A DNA stretch of 46,249 bases from Spirochaetes bacterium ADurb.Bin133 (GTDB lineage: Bacteria > Spirochaetota > GWE2-31-10 > MWDO01), in NCBI GenBank assembly GCA_002070605.1, contig MWDO01000022.1:1-46249 (forward strand). Reading direction: 5' to 3'. Shown here in pieces: positions 1-25,369 of the stretch; position 1 is the stretch's first letter; the number at the start of each line of letters is the position of its first letter. The position numbers were made by a program, and so were the translations under genes. The notes beneath the pieces were generated by a model. It was not told where the DNA came from and did not search any database. It was given only the letters and a program-made list of their open reading frames with translations.

Positions 1-2118
1 AACAATCTTTCATCGTACTTAACCAAACTTGGTTCAATTATAACCGCTTTAGCAGATTTAATCAATACTTTTACCTTAGCATCATATGCGTCGACTACGA
101 CTACAACAATTGAACCCACGACGACTACGGTAGAACCATCTACTACTACCACAACAACGACAATCGCTCCAACTACGACTACTATTGATCCAACAACTAT
201 TGGAGCTTATTTAAGAGGCAACTTCACAGGCTGGATTTTTGACAGTTCATATAAAATGACTTGTACAGATGCGGCGACCGGAACTTACGAATATACTTTA
301 ACTGGATTGGATTCCTACCCATATTTTAAAGTTATTGGAAACGACAAATATTGGAACGAGGCTCAATCGCTAAAACCTTACGACGAAATCAATTTGAACG
401 ATTTGGAAGAGGATTTGTTGAATACAGCAAATAATTATGTGTGGACTGTTACGGGCGTTACAGGCGTATATGATGCGGCGGGCGGAAAAGAGTGGGCTGC
501 AGGTATCGTCGGCGGAGCTATGAATAACTTCACATACAAGAGGATTGGTGGACAGTATAAAGTAACTGTTAAAGGGCTTGGAATAGATCCGATAAACAAT
601 AATTTCTTTCCTATGGATGCAGATAAGGGGATTATATATATAAAGCTTGACGAAATCGTTCCAGGGGCGGAAAGGATTGACGTATATGTATCCGATAACG
701 GCGTTAAACTAGGTATACCCGACGGGACGAGCGATTTTGATAGGGTAGGTATAGACGGCGGTTATCTGGAAAAAAGTTTTAATATCGTAAACGGTAGCGG
801 AGCTCAGATTAGCTTAAACGGCTCTCCGAGAGTCGCTATATCGGGAGACGACGCGGCGGACTTTACCGTTACTCAGACTCCGATGAGCGTAGTTCCGTCC
901 GGCAATCAGACGACATTTAAGATAAAATTCGCTCCTACAACTGCGGGAGTCAAGAGCGCTCTTGCAACTATACAATACGATACGACGAATAATCTGATTT
1001 TTAATCTTACCGGACGGGGAGCCGAAAAGGTTGCGAATCCTGCCTTTAGTCTGTCCGGCGGAGAGTCGAACGTTTATACGACGGCTCAATCTGTCGAGAT
1101 AACCTCGGCGACCGCCGGGGCGATAATAAGATATACTACCGATTGGACTATTCCGTCGAAAACAAACGGGACTCTGTATACCGGAGCGCTAAGTATATCG
1201 CAAACGACTACGATAAAAGCTATCGCATATATAGACGATACGTATCTGGATTCGGACGTAGTTGAGATATTATACTATTTTTCGCCCGTTTTTGCTATGG
1301 TCGACGTCCCGTCCGGCATTTTTAATATGAACGATAATTATCTTGTAGAGTTATCCGCGTTTAAGATGGGAAAATACGAGGTAACTTATGAGTTATGGTA
1401 TGAGGTAAAAACATGGGCTACAGCTAATGATTATACCTTTGCTAACTCCGGAGGAATGGGATACGGCGGAGGTAATACAAGTAGCAATCCTGTAACTTAT
1501 GTTAATTGGAGAGACTGTATAGTATGGTGCAACGCCTATACGGAGTATTACAATCTTACAAACGATCCGGATCTTACCCCCGTTTACTGGAGCGACTCCG
1601 GTTTTACGACTCTGTTGAAAAAGTCGACTAATACGGGTAGCGTTGATACTACCCCCGGTAGCGAGGATAAGCCCTATGTTAAGTGGTCTGCAGACGGATT
1701 TAGACTGCCTACCGAAGCGGAGTGGGAGTACGCAGCGCGTTATCAAGACGGGTCAAGCTGGACTCCTACAAACTACATGTCGGGCGCATCCGCCGATTGT
1801 GACGACACGGGGGCATGCGGCAAAGTAGCGTGGTATAGCGCTAACAGCGGTAGTAGAACTCATAACGTTGGAACAAAGAAGCCGAATCAGTTCGGTATAT
1901 ACGATATGTCCGGTAATGTCTACGAGTGGTGCTGGGACTGGTACGGAGAGCTACAGAGCGGAGTAATGGATCCGGTAGGTCCGGACGATGGGTCATACCG
2001 GCTTATTCGCGGCGGAGGCTGGGGCGGCGATGCTAACGATTGTCGAGTTGACTGCCGGTTCGACTACTACCCGTGGGACAGTGACCGCCAGCTTGGTTTT
2101 CGCCTTGTCAGGCGGTAG
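1..2118 (+). CDS. Multidomain surface protein with C-terminal SUMF/FGE-sulfatase (C-type-lectin-like) domain; 5' end outside window
   Basis: The frame is open from base 1, so this is the last 705 codons of a longer gene and the ATG at 256 is internal. Visible order: unknown start; a Thr-rich linker with repeated TTTT-I/V-x-P units (about residues 32-67); a carbohydrate-binding-like beta domain (about 68-165); a HYDIN/ASH-like beta domain rich in FKIKFAPTTAG-type sequence (about 255-345); a chitobiase C-terminal-like domain (about 345-425); and a SUMF domain (about 430-705) with RLPTEAEWEYAAR, MSGNVYEWCWDWYG and final LGFRLVRR. Of the two redox cysteines of true formylglycine-generating enzyme, the first aligns with G676 and the second with C681, so FGE activity is unlikely and a ligand-binding fold is more likely. 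Probably exported, but the signal peptide is not in view. The family's usual GGSW and P-D-x-R positions read GGGW and P-W-D-S, which fits a retroelement-diversified end. Confidence 0.85.
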   Translation, partial: NNLSSYLTKLGSIITALADLINTFTLASYASTTTTTIEPTTTTVEPSTTTTTTTIAPTTTTIDPTTIGAYLRGNFTGWIFDSSYKMTCTDAATGTYEYTLTGLDSYPYFKVIGNDKYWNEAQSLKPYDEINLNDLEEDLLNTANNYVWTVTGVTGVYDAAGGKEWAAGIVGGAMNNFTYKRIGGQYKVTVKGLGIDPINNNFFPMDADKGIIYIKLDEIVPGAERIDVYVSDNGVKLGIPDGTSDFDRVGIDGGYLEKSFNIVNGSGAQISLNGSPRVAISGDDAADFTVTQTPMSVVPSGNQTTFKIKFAPTTAGVKSALATIQYDTTNNLIFNLTGRGAEKVANPAFSLSGGESNVYTTAQSVEITSATAGAIIRYTTDWTIPSKTNGTLYTGALSISQTTTIKAIAYIDDTYLDSDVVEILYYFSPVFAMVDVPSGIFNMNDNYLVELSAFKMGKYEVTYELWYEVKTWATANDYTFANSGGMGYGGGNTSSNPVTYVNWRDCIVWCNAYTEYYNLTNDPDLTPVYWSDSGFTTLLKKSTNTGSVDTTPGSEDKPYVKWSADGFRLPTEAEWEYAARYQDGSSWTPTNYMSGASADCDDTGACGKVAWYSANSGSRTHNVGTKKPNQFGIYDMSGNVYEWCWDWYGELQSGVMDPVGPDDGSYRLIRGGGWGGDANDCRVDCRFDYYPWDSDRQLGFRLVRR
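2008..2118 (+). other. Candidate DGR variable region at the 3' end of the SUMF gene
   Basis: Between RGG (670-672) and LGFR (698-701), most positions that vary or are normally Asn/Asp/Ser/Arg are NNY codons, many ending in C (GGC, GGC, GAT, AAC, GAT, GAC, TGC, TTC, GAC, TAC, TAC, GAC, AGT, GAC, CGC). That is the pattern left by adenine-directed mutagenesis of AAY or AGY template codons. The gene end itself forms a 5-bp stem with a TGTC loop (2101-2114), and a larger hairpin begins ten bases after the stop. Diversity-generating retroelements acting on this fold are established in Treponema; the assignment here is inference, because no template repeat or reverse transcriptase lies in the window. 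Confidence 0.45.
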
Positions 2119-2127
2119 GGGGTACTT

Positions 2128-2174
2128 CTCGTCGGGTTTGCGTCCTTTAGGGCGCAGGGCGTAAACCCGACGAG
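2128..2174. repeat. Palindromic hairpin, copy 1 (just after SUMF stop)
   Basis: Perfect 12-bp arms CTCGTCGGGTTT (2128-2139) and AAACCCGACGAG (2163-2174) enclose an inner GCGTCC-TTTA-GGGCGC hairpin with one G-T pair. There is no downstream T-run, so it is not a typical intrinsic terminator. Bases 2128-2154 recur exactly at 2928-2954. It could be the cruciform needed next to a DGR target, or a REP-type palindrome. Confidence 0.8.
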
Positions 2175-2904: not shown

Positions 2905-2928
2905 GGCGCGGTCCTTAGTCCTTAGTCC
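2891..2928. repeat. Perfect palindrome and short tandem repeat
   Basis: ACGGCGCGCCGT (2891-2902) is a perfect 12-bp palindrome overlapping the end of the decayed frame. It is followed by two tandem copies of GTCCTTA plus GTCC (2911-2928), directly abutting hairpin copy 2. Confidence 0.6.
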
Positions 2929-2967
2929 TCGTCGGGTTTGCGTCCTTTAGGGCGAAACCCGACGAGG
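2927..2967. repeat. Palindromic hairpin, copy 2
   Basis: Arms CCTCGTCGGGTTT (2927-2939) and AAACCCGACGAGG (2955-2967) continue inward through GCGTCC-TTTA-GGGCG, giving about 18 paired bases with one bulge and a TTTA loop. A 27-base core is identical to copy 1 near 2128. Confidence 0.8.
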
Positions 2968-2992
2968 AACCGGGAGATTTTATTAAGCGTCC

Positions 2993-3031
2993 CATATGTG
3001 TCAAATTTATTTTGACACATATGCGTTTTTT
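2993..3031. terminator. Terminator-like hairpin made from CATATG-family repeat
   Basis: CATATGTGTCAAA (2993-3005), loop TTTAT, TTTGACACATATG (3011-3023) form a perfect 13-bp stem followed by CG and a run of eight T. It could end transcription of the accessory region. Its arms belong to the dispersed CATATGYGTCAA repeat family. Confidence 0.55.
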
Positions 3032-10486: not shown

Positions 10487-10630
10487 GTCGGTTTTTTTGA
10501 GGATGGGAAAATAAAAACATCTGTTTCATATGCGTCAATTTTATTCTTAACGTCATATGCGTCGAATTTTTCATCAAAGAGCGCTTGCGGCGCATATGTG
10601 TCATTTTTTCCCCAACCAAAAAACCGACGG
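10487..10630. mobile_element. MITE-like intergenic element with terminal inverted repeats
   Basis: GTCGGTTTTTT-type ends (10487-10498) are matched by AAAAAACCGAC (10618-10628). Between them lie three copies of CATATGYGTC (from about 10527, 10554 and 10593). It has no coding capacity. Related sequences occur at 3099-3110 and 18019-18084. Confidence 0.45.
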
Positions 10631-18018: not shown

Positions 18019-18084
18019 CATATGCGTCAATTTTATTCTTAATGTCGCATGTGTCGAATTTCTCCGCCTCTCCAAAAAACCGAC
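18019..18084. repeat. CATATG-family intergenic repeat, partial element
   Basis: CATATGCGTCAATTTTATTC at 18019 continues almost identically to the copy at 10527, then GCATGTGTCGAATTT, ending with AAAAAACCGAC (18074-18084), the same end as the element at 10487-10630. The left terminal repeat is missing. Confidence 0.6.
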
Positions 18085-19710: not shown

Positions 19711-20133
19711 ATGAGCAAAGAATTATTAAAAAGGGATTTTACCGATATTTTTCCGTCGTTTTTTAACGAAGGAGCAAAATGGTTGCGCGGATTTAATTCC
19801 GAGTTTGACAAGATCCTAAATGGAAAATGCGATTTTGAGGACAGGGATAACGAATACTATATCGAACTAGAAACTCCGGGAGTTGAGAAAAACGAAATAA
19901 ATATCAACTTTAAAAACGATAATCTGGTAGTAAATTGGAGCAGGACGAGGGAAGAGAAAAAAGGAAAAAGCGATAAGAGCAGATACGAACGATCTTCGGG
20001 AAGTTTTCAGAGAAGTTTTAACGTAGAAGGCGCAGATTTCGAAAAAATCGAAGCGGAATTGAAAAACGGAGTATTAAAAATAACTATTCCGAAACTGGAA
20101 AAAGTAAAAGCAAAACAGATAACCATTAAATAA
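19711..20133 (+). CDS. Small heat-shock protein, Hsp20/alpha-crystallin family (1 of 3)
   Basis: 140 residues: short variable N-terminus, alpha-crystallin domain from about residue 45 (YYIELETPGVEKNEINI) and the conserved AELKNGVLKITIPK end. An ATP-independent holdase that binds unfolding proteins as oligomers. AAGGAGG precedes the ATG. First of three tandem paralogues with gaps of 24 and 18 bases and a shared terminator. It lacks an obvious C-terminal Ile-x-Ile anchoring motif, ending in KQITIK. Confidence 0.93.
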   Translation: MSKELLKRDFTDIFPSFFNEGAKWLRGFNSEFDKILNGKCDFEDRDNEYYIELETPGVEKNEININFKNDNLVVNWSRTREEKKGKSDKSRYERSSGSFQRSFNVEGADFEKIEAELKNGVLKITIPKLEKVKAKQITIK

Positions 20134-20157
20134 CATTTAAAATTTAAGGAGGAAAAT

Positions 20158-20565
20158 ATGTACAGAACAATTTTTGACGATCTTTACAGATTAAACAGGG
20201 AGATGAACAGATTATTTACCGGTCCGGGAAAATATTCAAACAAAGCATATTGGCCGGAGGTAAATCTTTACGAGAATCAATCGGAATACGTCGCCGTAGT
20301 AAGCATTCCGGGGGTAGAAAAAGATAAGATTGCGATATCTTACAAGGACAACTCGCTAAAGATAAGCGGCGAAAAGGGCTCGGAAAATGAAGCTAAGACA
20401 AATTACCACTTAAAAGAACGAAAAACCGGTAAATTCGAAAGAAACATAATGTTTCAAGAGAAGGTCGAGGGGGGTAAGATTGGAGCGGAAATGAAAAACG
20501 GATTTTTACTTGTAAAAATTCCGAAATCGCCCGAAGCGAAGCCCGTTACAATCGCAATCAAATAA
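20158..20565 (+). CDS. Small heat-shock protein, Hsp20 family (2 of 3)
   Basis: 135 residues. The N-terminus (FDDLYRLNREMNRLF) is the classic bacterial Hsp20 class A start, followed by the alpha-crystallin domain with YVAVVSIPGVEKDKIAI and AEMKNGFLLVKIPK. This is the most canonical of the three and probably the ancestral-type copy. AAGGAGG lies before the ATG. Hetero-oligomers with its neighbours are plausible. Confidence 0.95.
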   Translation: MYRTIFDDLYRLNREMNRLFTGPGKYSNKAYWPEVNLYENQSEYVAVVSIPGVEKDKIAISYKDNSLKISGEKGSENEAKTNYHLKERKTGKFERNIMFQEKVEGGKIGAEMKNGFLLVKIPKSPEAKPVTIAIK

Positions 20566-20583
20566 AATTTTAAGGAGGATAAT

Positions 20584-20967
20584 ATGAACTTAAGGAAAAA
20601 TGAAAATATTCAGAACGTTGAAACGACAAGGGGATATTCGTACGTGGCGCCGGACTGCGATATTTTTGAAACAGACGGCGAATATAAAATAGTTTTTGAT
20701 ATACCCGGCGTAGAAAAAGACGATATAAATATAAAAGTTGAAAAAGAAGTCCTAACCGTTACGGCGGAGTGTAAAAAAGAACCCGTGGAGGGTTACGGAT
20801 GCGTAAACGACGAATTTGACCTGTCCGGCTATACGAGATCTTTCAATCTAAATAACGTCGTAGATACGACCAAAATCGAAGCGGACTATAAAAACGGAAC
20901 GCTGGAGCTTACTCTTCCCAAAAAAGAAGAGCAAAAAACAAAAGAGATAAAGATCAAAGTATCGTAA
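20584..20967 (+). CDS. Small heat-shock protein, Hsp20 family (3 of 3)
   Basis: 127 residues, with YKIVFDIPGVEKDDINI and ADYKNGTLELTLPK of the alpha-crystallin domain. The N-terminus is short and unlike the second copy, and it contains ECKKEPVEGYGCVNDEF, giving two cysteines the others lack. Strong AAGGAGG site. Last gene of the operon before a strong intrinsic terminator. Confidence 0.93.
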   Translation: MNLRKNENIQNVETTRGYSYVAPDCDIFETDGEYKIVFDIPGVEKDDINIKVEKEVLTVTAECKKEPVEGYGCVNDEFDLSGYTRSFNLNNVVDTTKIEADYKNGTLELTLPKKEEQKTKEIKIKVS

Positions 20968-21116: not shown

Positions 21117-21226
21117 CATATGCGACGCGTCGCTCCCCGATAGAAATTTGACACATATGGAGCTATACTCGCCGCGTCGCCGATAACGCCGCTCCCCGAT
21201 AGAAATTGACACATATGCGTCAATTT
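21117..21226. repeat. CATATG-family intergenic repeat, tandem units
   Basis: Two near-identical units reading CGCTCCCCGATAGAAATTT or close variants and running into GACACATATG lie at 21131-21159 and 21190-21217. The second continues into a near-perfect 24-base palindrome centred on CATATG (21203-21226). A further CATATG lies at 21117. Similar sequence occurs at 46159-46187. Confidence 0.7.
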
Positions 21227-21279
21227 TTTTCTCTCGCCCCCAAAAGACCGGCGAGTTAACATCCCAAATAACATAATAC

Positions 21280-22516: not shown

Positions 22517-25369
22517 ATGGAAAAAAATATGGCGCTTGAAGGTAAAAAAATATTTAGAGTAAGATGGCAACTATTATTTGTTATACTTCCAATTTCAATT
22601 ATTCCATTAATAATTATAGTGTACGTCTCTTCAAACAGAATATATCGACACATAGCGTCGAAAGAGATAGAATTTTATTCTTCGGTAATTTCTCAAATAT
22701 CATATAACGCGGACGCTTTGATTAATCAAAGTTCTTTATCTATACATGAAATTTCTAATATGGACAATTTTAAGAAATTGTTAAACGCGCCCCCTTTTAA
22801 ATCTGCGATGGAAGAAGCCGAGTTTTACGGAGAAACAAGGGAATTTGAAGCCGACACTCCGCCGGGAAGTATAAGAAGAGCAATTTACACAAAATTAAAC
22901 GGCGATTTTTTTTATATAGAGCTGGACAGGAAATCTTTTTTAACAAATACGGATTATAAACTAAATTTTTTTAGTTTGACCTCGATTACGATAAACGTAC
23001 AAAATCTTATAAACGATCCTTTGTTTCTTGAACTAGATAAAAACCCCGATAAGAAATTCTCTATCGGGAAATTAAGCGATAGCTCCGCGGTAGGTTACGA
23101 TTCCGACAAGAGAGCCGCTATTATATTTCCATGCGCTTACGACAATAATAAAAGTATTACAAAATTCATCGTTTATATGTTTCATAAAAATAGTTTTGAG
23201 AATTTTTATAACGATATTGAAAATTTAAAAATCGGGACTCTGTTTTTCCTTGATAAAAACGACAAATTAATTCTAAAAAATCACCCCGATTCTAACGACG
23301 ATTACAATTACGATTACGATAAGAAAAGTTATATTTACGATAAAACCGTAACCGAAGAGGGCAATATGACTTTTAACGACTATCAGAATTTGTTGACGGA
23401 CGAAGAGGTATTAAAACAAACGGAAATATCAAGATTTCTTGATCCCGACAACTACGCGTATCGGGAAACATTTAGTTTCTTGTCGTATAATGATTTAAAA
23501 AGCAAAGTTATTAAATATAAAAATAAAAAGTATTTTGTCATTAATGAATTTTCTATAAATTCTGAATTCAAATATTTGTTTTTTCTGCCGATATATCATA
23601 CTCAAAAACCGATCTTTAGACTTATAATTTTTATAGTACTATTCACTTTTTTGTTAATCATAGTCGTTACTTATGCAAGTATCCTCCTTAGTAAATATAT
23701 AACCGATCCTATAAAAGAATTAATAATTGTGGCGCAAAAAATTGCGATGGGAAATTATAAGGTAAAACCAATCTACATTAAATCAAATAACGAAATACGA
23801 TTGTTGCAAATAGCTTTCAATAAGATGATCAAAGAGATAAATGAAAATACTGAAAATTTGGAGAAGAAGGTGTCGGAAAGAACAGAGGCTTTACAGATAG
23901 CAAATCAGGAGAAAACTCAATATTTTATTAATCTCACTCATGAAACTAAAACGCCGCTGACATTAATCAAAAATTATCTTGATAAATACATAAAATCCCA
24001 TTCGACCGACGAAGATATTATGGTAGTAAAGCAAAACGTCGATAAATTGCTTAGAGATATGATTAATCTACTCGACGTAGAAAAACTCTCAAGGAATCAG
24101 TTGTTTTACGACAACGAAACTTCTGTTAATATATCGGAAATAATTAATTACAAAATAAAAATTTTTAGCGAATACGCGTCCCAAAAACAGATAAGTCTAT
24201 CCGGAGAGGTTGAGCCTTCGTTATTTGCGAAGGGGGATCCGGCGGCGTTTGATAGAATTGCAAATAATTTGATAGAAAATTCTATAAAATATACCAATCC
24301 CAACGGCTCTATTTTTGTATCCGTCAAAAAAGAAGAGGATAAAATATTATTTACAGTTTCGGATACGGGTATTGGAATATCGGAAGATCAAATTAAGTTT
24401 TTATTTAAACCTTATCGTCAACTTTCTTCTTCCAAGAGAAACATTCAAGGAATAGGAATGGGATTATGTATAGTAAAAAAAATTGTCGAAAGTCTCGGCG
24501 GAGAAATATCGGTAGATTCCGAGTTGGGAAAGGGCTCTAAGTTTACGGTTAAATTAACGGAATGTTTGGGAAAAAATGTTACGATAGCCGATAATACGGC
24601 GATTTATAATAGCAAACCTGATTTTAATCAAGGGTATGGCGATTTATCGGAATATGAGTTTAATGAAAAAATGAAATCTATTTTAGTAGTAGACGACAAT
24701 AAAGATATATTAAAATTATTACAGACGAGCTTGTCGGATAAATATAACGTTTTATTGGCTACCGGCGGCGAAGAGGCGATACGAAAATTAGAGCGCTCCG
24801 TTAAACCGGAATTAATCATTTCGGACGTAATGATGGACGGTCTGAACGGCAACGAACTGCTTTCTAAGATAACGCTAAACGAAGAACTTAAAGATATTCC
24901 TTTTGTTTTTTTGACCGCCAAAACTTCGGGCGAAGAAAAAATAAAAGGCCTTGCGGCGGGCGCTTTGGATTATATTTTTAAACCCTTTGAAATGGACGAG
25001 GTCTGCGCAAAAGTAGATTCTATTATAAGGAATAAAGAGGCGCAAAATAAAAAAAACGTTAGAGAGTTTGAGAAAAAAATATCCTCAATGTTGTCAAACA
25101 ATAATCCCGTAGAACGGGAGATCGATATAGAAGCGGCGGTCGAGGGTAAAGATTTGAAATTAAAGTCTTTTGAAACGTTATGTCTGGATTATAAAATTTC
25201 AAATAAAGAAAAAGAAGTTATTAAACACATATTGAACGGTTTATATAACAAAGAAATAGCGGATATTTTAAACATTTCTTTGAAAACTGTGGAATTTCAT
25301 ATTCATAACATCTATAATAAACTTGATATTCACAATAGAATAGAATTAATTAAAATATTTAAAATTTGA
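22517..25369 (+). CDS. Membrane hybrid histidine kinase with receiver and C-terminal LuxR-type DNA-binding domain
   Basis: 950 residues. Order: TM1 (about 18-39), extracytoplasmic sensor of about 325 residues without a recognised ligand motif, TM2 (about 368-393), HAMP (to about 445), HisKA with H475 in INLTHETKTP, HATPase (NLIENSIKYTNPNG; SDTGIGIS; GIGMGLCIVKKI), receiver with D770 in IISDVMMDG and KPF lysine, and a LuxR/GerE HTH (about 890-950: SNKEKEVIKHILNGLYNKEIADILNI). All catalytic residues appear present. Sensor, kinase and transcription factor are in one chain, so it must bind DNA from the membrane or after proteolysis. The next gene is a lipoprotein with its own promoter, a candidate target. 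Confidence 0.9.
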   Translation: MEKNMALEGKKIFRVRWQLLFVILPISIIPLIIIVYVSSNRIYRHIASKEIEFYSSVISQISYNADALINQSSLSIHEISNMDNFKKLLNAPPFKSAMEEAEFYGETREFEADTPPGSIRRAIYTKLNGDFFYIELDRKSFLTNTDYKLNFFSLTSITINVQNLINDPLFLELDKNPDKKFSIGKLSDSSAVGYDSDKRAAIIFPCAYDNNKSITKFIVYMFHKNSFENFYNDIENLKIGTLFFLDKNDKLILKNHPDSNDDYNYDYDKKSYIYDKTVTEEGNMTFNDYQNLLTDEEVLKQTEISRFLDPDNYAYRETFSFLSYNDLKSKVIKYKNKKYFVINEFSINSEFKYLFFLPIYHTQKPIFRLIIFIVLFTFLLIIVVTYASILLSKYITDPIKELIIVAQKIAMGNYKVKPIYIKSNNEIRLLQIAFNKMIKEINENTENLEKKVSERTEALQIANQEKTQYFINLTHETKTPLTLIKNYLDKYIKSHSTDEDIMVVKQNVDKLLRDMINLLDVEKLSRNQLFYDNETSVNISEIINYKIKIFSEYASQKQISLSGEVEPSLFAKGDPAAFDRIANNLIENSIKYTNPNGSIFVSVKKEEDKILFTVSDTGIGISEDQIKFLFKPYRQLSSSKRNIQGIGMGLCIVKKIVESLGGEISVDSELGKGSKFTVKLTECLGKNVTIADNTAIYNSKPDFNQGYGDLSEYEFNEKMKSILVVDDNKDILKLLQTSLSDKYNVLLATGGEEAIRKLERSVKPELIISDVMMDGLNGNELLSKITLNEELKDIPFVFLTAKTSGEEKIKGLAAGALDYIFKPFEMDEVCAKVDSIIRNKEAQNKKNVREFEKKISSMLSNNNPVEREIDIEAAVEGKDLKLKSFETLCLDYKISNKEKEVIKHILNGLYNKEIADILNISLKTVEFHIHNIYNKLDIHNRIELIKIFKI

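What the first reader, a model, noticed from the sequence alone, without database searches (positions are those of the whole stretch)
2008..2174. Candidate diversity-generating retroelement target at the end of a SUMF/C-type-lectin surface protein
Seen: the codons between RGG and LGFR are mostly NNY with residues rarely seen at these positions in the SUMF family (GGGW for GGSW; P-W-D-S where P-D-x-R is usual; C685, F687, W692), all reachable by changing A in AAY, AGY or AAG codons. A 5-bp hairpin lies in the last codons and a long hairpin starts ten bases after the stop, matching the layout in which a DGR target region is followed by a cruciform. Known: in Treponema denticola a DGR diversifies TvpA, which has this fold. 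Inference: this is a (possibly remote) DGR target in this genome.
Basis: partly seen in the sequence, partly recalled or inferred. Interest (0 to 1): 0.75.

Follow-up and report, generated by a model that had tools for sequence, protein, structure and literature searches.

The report
Orphan hypervariable tail of spirochaete lipoprotein
The end of this surface-protein gene is a hypervariable patch of the kind that bacteria rewrite with a retroelement (as in Treponema TvpA), but the rewriting machinery was not found in this genome and this copy looks like a leftover cut off at its front by a mobile element, so it is a new member of a known kind.

Summary
The window is contig 22 of a draft spirochaete genome (3.0 Mb, 103 contigs, 95.6% complete). 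The gene ending at 2118 is a TvpA-like C-type-lectin/FGE protein: its best solved relative is Treponema denticola TvpA, E 3e-40, against about 1e-12 for formylglycine-generating enzymes. Three intact paralogous C-termini differ in a 24-codon core, mostly at codon positions 1 and 2 (30/48 columns variable, 89/466 upstream, p 8e-10), and variable codons are NNY in 55 of 57. A genome of the same genus carries a complete DGR (FGE target, HRDC protein, Avd, RT, TR). Its TR differs from its own VR at 21 adenines and nowhere else in 111 bases. Columns that are A in that TR vary in 30/42 cases among the window's paralogs, other columns in 16/69. So the DGR-target reading is well supported. The cassette was not found in this genome: the only RT is a Cas6-RT-Cas1 fusion, with no Avd or TR. 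The window copy lacks a start because its first ~90 bases are the end of a multicopy insertion element. A second copy is truncated and frameshifted. The best reading is leftover DGR targets, as in T. denticola strains that keep targets without cassette; a cassette lost in assembly remains possible.

The parts
1..92 (+). end of a multicopy insertion element, in frame by chance with the target gene; it truncates the gene's 5' end
   Evidence: 88-94 bases match more than 30 other places, nearly all at contig ends, with unrelated flanks; one copy (C39) lies about 0.5 kb past an ISNCY-type transposase C-terminus
93..2118 (+). 5'-truncated TvpA-like target gene: Thr-rich linker, chitobiase/Fn3-type domain, C-terminal FGE-sulfatase/C-type-lectin domain
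   Evidence: Pfam FGE-sulfatase E 4e-36, CHB_HEX_C_1 E 2e-12; TvpA 2y3c E 3e-40; no in-frame start before 256
2008..2022 (+). constant motif RGGGW at the 5' side of the variable core
   Evidence: GGxW kept in C1, C4 and C30; first residue R, C in C1
2023..2094 (+). variable region core (24 codons)
   Evidence: codon positions 1-2 variable in 30/48 columns among three paralogs; 55/57 variable codons NNY
2095..2118 (+). constant 3' end GFRLVRR-stop, IMH-like by position (inferred); contains a 5-bp stem-loop at 2101-2114
   Evidence: TTCGCCTTGTCAGGCGG identical in C1, 1 mismatch in C4 under the search pattern; fold
2128..2174 (+). long hairpin downstream of the target, cruciform-like by layout
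   Evidence: fold z -5.0; same hairpin after C1 and C4; strict pattern at only three places in the genome plus this variant
2923..2977 (+). further copy of the same hairpin, 800 bases downstream, not next to a variable region
   Evidence: the repeat finder D13/I24; fold z -4.7

Best explanation
The 3' end of the gene is the variable region of a TvpA-type DGR target. In the working system, shown here by a complete cassette in a same-genus genome, an RNA copy of an adenine-rich template repeat is reverse transcribed by a DGR RT with Avd (and an HRDC protein). Adenines are misread, and the cDNA replaces the target's 3' end, anchored at the constant GFR end and helped by the hairpin, so that ligand-face residues of a surface lipoprotein change while the lectin fold stays. 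In this genome the window copy is most likely a leftover target: the cassette is absent from the assembly, the copy has lost its start to an insertion element, and its present sequence records past rewriting. Shown: fold family by sequence, adenine-column variation, cassette in the relative, absence from the assembly. Inferred: retrohoming as the past cause here, loss rather than missed assembly, the role of the hairpin, surface location of the window copy.
For: TvpA (2y3c) is the best PDB hit, E 3e-40 against about 1e-12 for FGE enzymes. Variation concentrated in the VR core at codon positions 1-2, OR 7.1, p 8e-10, while position 3 is at background. NNY 55/57. Same-genus DGR: FGE target, HRDC, Avd (NCBIfam DivGenRetAVD, above cut-off), RT, TR; TR/VR differ at 21 of 42 A and 0 of 69 non-A columns. 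A columns of that TR vary in 30/42 cases in this genome, non-A 16/69, p 1e-6; restricted to positions 1-2 of the core 27/33 against 3/15, p 7e-5; an order-level TR gives 25/34 against 21/77. Cassette not found: RVT_1 finds only Cas6-RT-Cas1, while the same search finds the sister's DGR RT; sister RT against own genome nothing; bAvd nothing credible; no TR. Damage: insertion-element end at 1-92; C30 copy truncated and frameshifted. Precedent: 8 of 17 T. denticola strains keep 2-6 targets without RT or TR (PMC4891356).
Against: No TR from this species, so adenine specificity is tested only through relatives' templates. The assembly is 95.6% complete in 103 contigs, so the cassette may simply be missing. 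Two targets (C1, C4) are intact with lipoprotein-like leaders, as expected if they still serve a function. Residues chosen by selection would fall in the same codons as adenines of a related template, so part of the signal could be selection on inherited variable sites.
Confidence: 0.68

Rival explanations
1. An active DGR whose cassette lies in the part of the genome missing from the assembly (or on an unbinned element) still rewrites C1, C4 and possibly the window copy as remote targets.
For: 95.6% completeness and 103 contigs; C1 and C4 intact; same-genus and same-order genomes have cassettes; a T. denticola strain with cassette shows a similar mix, 38 of 56 variable columns at A (PMC4891356), against 30 of 46 here.
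Against: A single missing locus is improbable a priori at this completeness; RT, Avd and TR are all absent; non-A columns differ at the background rate (16/69 against 20% upstream), unlike the sister's core VR, which matches its TR at all 69 non-A columns.
Confidence: 0.2
2. The variability was produced by ordinary duplication, gene conversion and diversifying selection on a lectin binding face, without a DGR.
For: Paralogs differ along their whole length (20% of columns upstream); no cassette in this genome.
Against: Position-3 changes are not raised while positions 1-2 are, variable codons are almost all NNY, the variable columns coincide with adenines of two relatives' templates, and the nearest solved relative is itself a DGR target.
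Confidence: 0.08
3. The gene end is an ordinary FGE/SUMF enzyme C-terminus and the hairpin is only a terminator or dispersed repeat.
For: Two ordinary FGE-type paralogs exist (C58, C2), one with 18/24 NNY codons. A hairpin copy lies away from any VR (2923-2977), and related hairpins lie away from VRs in the sister genome.
Against: Much higher similarity to TvpA than to FGE enzymes, paralog hypervariation confined to the TvpA-like VR, and the hairpin found after the stops of all three intact C-termini.
Confidence: 0.03

Closest known systems
Treponema denticola DGR target TvpA (PDB 2Y3C) and its paralogs
   Same: FGE-type C-type-lectin fold, variable region at the extreme C-terminus between RGGxW and LGFR, lipoprotein-type paralogs, several targets scattered in one genome, strains that keep targets without RT or TR (PMC4891356)
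   Different: another spirochaete lineage; different N-terminal domains (Thr-rich linkers, chitobiase/Fn3, Flg_new repeats); a long hairpin after the stop; the window copy is 5'-truncated by an insertion element
DGR of the same-genus genome (Spirochaetes bacterium Go_SlDig_bin_318, JAGOCL010000050.1)
   Same: FGE target with the same length and register of the VR; a remote second target on another contig; hairpin downstream of the VR
   Different: has RT, Avd, HRDC protein and TR next to the core target; that target's VR matches its TR at every non-A column
Bordetella phage BPP-1 DGR target (Mtd; hairpin/cruciform after the VR)
   Same: layout: VR at the gene end, constant 3' end, hairpin just downstream (PMC3240598)
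   Different: in phage DGRs 7-10 bp stems with a GRNA loop, 4-34 bp after the VR; here about 19 pairs with a TAAA or longer loop, function untested

Membership tests
DGR target (TvpA-type variable protein) | C-type lectin/FGE fold with the variable region at the C-terminus | tested here: met
   Pfam FGE-sulfatase E 4e-36; TvpA E 3e-40 by sequence; no structure was predicted
DGR target (TvpA-type variable protein) | variation concentrated in the VR and at codon positions 1-2 of AAY-derived codons | tested here: met
   30/48 against 89/466 columns; NNY 55/57
DGR target (TvpA-type variable protein) | differences from its own template only at template adenines | tested here: inconclusive
   no own template found; relatives' templates predict the variable columns (30/42 against 16/69; 25/34 against 21/77)
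DGR target (TvpA-type variable protein) | hairpin/cruciform just downstream of the VR | tested here: inconclusive
   strong hairpin 9-10 bases after the stop, shared by three paralogs, but the loop is not GRNA and other copies lie away from VRs
complete DGR in this genome | DGR-clade reverse transcriptase | tested here: not met
   only Cas6-RT-Cas1 in the assembly; assembly 95.6% complete
complete DGR in this genome | template repeat | tested here: not met
   blastn and pattern searches find only the four VRs; the best other pattern hits (C23, C48) were read and are not templates
complete DGR in this genome | accessory protein (Avd) | tested here: not met
   Avd: only sub-threshold hits with stops, in a glgC-like gene (C4) and beside a nucleotidyltransferase-like locus (C45)
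active diversification | population-level variation at template adenines | not testable with these tools
   no reads or second strain available

The most novel reading that the evidence does not exclude
The intact targets C1 and C4 are kept as a set of receptors that a DGR carried elsewhere (another replicon, phage or strain) can rewrite in trans after horizontal arrival of the cassette, the target-side hairpin and constant 3' end being maintained for that purpose.
Probability: 0.07. Interest if true: 0.6.

Novelty: new member of a known kind. Interest (0 to 1): 0.3.

Why it matters
It extends TvpA-type DGR targets to another spirochaete lineage, from which one relative (a MAG titled Go_SlDig_bin_318) carries the full cassette and this one only the targets. 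The pair would let one ask how hypervariable lipoproteins fare after the mutator is gone: whether binding sequences freeze, decay or are kept by selection. It also shows that target genes alone, without RT in the assembly, can be recognised by paralog comparison plus a relative's template. The kind itself, including target-only strains, was described in T. denticola in 2016, so the surprise is limited.

Tried and rejected
A first run of the codon statistics used one paralog out of frame and is void; one search replaces it. Avd-like hits at C4:92087 and C45:22022 have internal stops and lie in a glgC-like gene and beside a nucleotidyltransferase-like locus. Pattern hits resembling a template at C23 and C48 are unrelated sequence. 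I first took the contig ends beside three of the four targets as a sign of unassembled extra copies; rejected for the window, because the break is the multicopy insertion element; the C1 end carries a short tandem repeat and the C30 end repeats shared with other contigs. Viral contigs gave only distant FGE proteins (best hits 36-53% identity). The DGR RTs listed from phage records are about 40% identical or less to the sister RT; none gave this species' cassette. The C34 hit is a short tail remnant (...GFRIVRRDN, stop, hairpin), not a fifth target or a template. No structure was predicted, since the sequence match to TvpA already settles the fold family.

Full report
What was checked. The window is contig 22 of a draft genome (G000; 2,985,136 bases, 103 contigs, 95.6% complete). 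The relative of the same genus (G001) is a MAG titled Spirochaetes bacterium Go_SlDig_bin_318, so the window comes from that lineage. Pfam gives an FGE-sulfatase domain (E 4e-36) preceded by a chitobiase/Fn3-type domain. Against solved structures the best hit is T. denticola variable protein TvpA, 2y3c, E 3e-40 over residues 6-268 of the 270 given; formylglycine-generating enzymes follow at about 1e-12.

Paralogs. The genome holds three close relatives of the C-terminal domain: C1 (351 aa, lipoprotein-like leader), C4 (987 aa, lipoprotein-like leader) and C30 (truncated and frameshifted). Two ordinary FGE-type proteins (C58, C2) are more distant. The ends read: window GGGWGGDANDCRVDCRFDYYPWDSDRQLGFRLVRR, C1 GGGWNYNASNCRVGYRLSYYPWFSSNNIGFRLVRR, C4 GGGWNCNPFDCRIGYRDYGIPWYIYYAVGFRVVRR.

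Is it more than chance? In the 24-codon core, codon positions 1+2 are variable in 30 of 48 columns against 89 of 466 upstream in the same domain (odds ratio 7.1, p 8e-10). Position 3 is not raised (8/24 against 72/233, p 0.8). At codons that change the residue, 55 of 57 are NNY against 140 of 210 upstream (p 1e-6). NNY content of the window copy alone (19/24) is not decisive, since the ordinary FGE gene on C2 has 18/24. W692 is invariant and so is not a diversified codon.

A working cassette in the same genus. G001 contig C160 carries, in order, an FGE target, an HRDC protein, Avd (Pfam bAvd E 2e-21; NCBIfam DivGenRetAVD, above its cut-off; PHROG 'Avd protein of DGR'), a 328-aa RT and a template repeat. 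Template and core VR differ at 21 of 42 adenine columns and at none of 69 others. A second, remote target on C391 differs at 19 A and 17 non-A columns. A same-order genome (G007) has FGE target, HRDC, TR and RT, with adenine-only differences in the 130 bases printed; G002 of the same family has a DGR with another kind of target.

Using the relatives' templates as predictors. Template and window VR have the same length and register. Columns that are A in the G001 template vary among the three G000 copies in 30 of 42 cases, other columns in 16 of 69 (p 1e-6). Within core positions 1-2 the numbers are 27/33 and 3/15 (p 7e-5). With the G007 template they are 25/34 and 21/77 (p 8e-6). Non-A columns vary at 23%, like the upstream background of 20%. 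In T. denticola ATCC 35405, which has a cassette, 38 of 56 variable columns are at template adenines (PMC4891356); here it is 30 of 46. So this mix does not by itself separate active from leftover targets.

The cassette in this genome. The only RVT_1 match is a 977-aa protein with Cas6, RT and Cas1 parts. The same search finds the sister's DGR RT, which serves as a positive control. The sister RT has no match in the genome. Avd hits are sub-threshold, with stops, and lie elsewhere. No template was found by blastn or by pattern.

The window copy is damaged. Its first 88-94 bases match more than 30 places in the genome, nearly all at contig ends, with unrelated sequence beyond a common ...CATATG end. 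One copy lies about 0.5 kb past an ISNCY-type transposase C-terminus. The ORF is open to the window's edge only because this element end is in frame; the first start codon in frame is at 256, inside the protein. The gene's own leader is therefore missing from this contig. Whether it lies beyond the element is unknown.

Hairpins. The long hairpin (about 2128-2174) folds far better than shuffles and is repeated after C1 and C4. Strict copies occur only after C1, after C4 and at window 2923-2977, plus the variant at the window VR. The sister's core VR is followed by a different hairpin (z -5.9). In BPP-1 a hairpin downstream of the VR is needed for efficient retrohoming, with 7-10 bp stems and a GRNA loop in phage DGRs (PMC3240598). 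The layout agrees, but stem length and loop do not, and a copy away from any VR exists, so its role is inferred only.

Verdict. Member of the TvpA kind of DGR target: well supported (about 0.88). Leftover without cassette rather than active with a missed cassette: more likely than not. The reasons are the absence of RT, Avd and TR at 95.6% completeness, two damaged copies of four, and the precedent of 8 of 17 T. denticola strains with targets but no RT or TR. A finished genome or reads would decide.

Noticed in passing
window 1-92; over 30 other contig ends of G000 (e.g. L202-L234): End of a multicopy insertion element with a shared ...ACTTTTACCTTAGCATCATATG boundary; it explains many of the assembly's contig breaks. 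A copy on C39 lies about 0.5 kb past an ISNCY-type transposase C-terminus.
   Followed up: partly
L022 6361-9294 (G000:C37): Cas6-RT-Cas1 fusion protein beside type III-like CRISPR genes: RNA-to-DNA spacer acquisition is likely. It is the only reverse transcriptase found in this genome.
   Followed up: partly
L094 1460-1600 (G000:C34, minus strand): Short remnant ending GFRIVRRDN-stop, followed at once by a different hairpin: probably the tail of a lost target-like gene, next to a glutamate-dehydrogenase-like gene.
   Followed up: partly
L021 3971-4980 (G000:C30, minus strand): Fourth target copy: 5'-truncated, frameshifted, without the hairpin, its end running into a Thr-rich linker before a 415-aa ORF.
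   Followed up: partly
window 2993-3013, 10527-10572, 18019-18064, 21187-21232 and elsewhere: Short dispersed repeats like CATATGYGTCAAWTT, often near CCAAAAAACCGACGG, are scattered in intergenic regions of the genome; function unknown.
   Followed up: no
L059 (G002:C115): Same-family genome with a DGR (RT, Avd, TR) whose target ends ...SSSYSNSTAWYQSFYSGDQNYDYKHGRGSVRAVRAF, a different kind of target from FGE; TR/VR differences at adenines.
   Followed up: partly
window 22517-25369: Single protein with HAMP, histidine-kinase ATPase, response-regulator and LuxR-type DNA-binding domains: a one-piece two-component system.
   Followed up: no
window 19711-20967: Three adjacent small ORFs sharing a 3' repeat (D1); the first is an Hsp20 protein, so probably a tandem Hsp20 set.
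   Followed up: no
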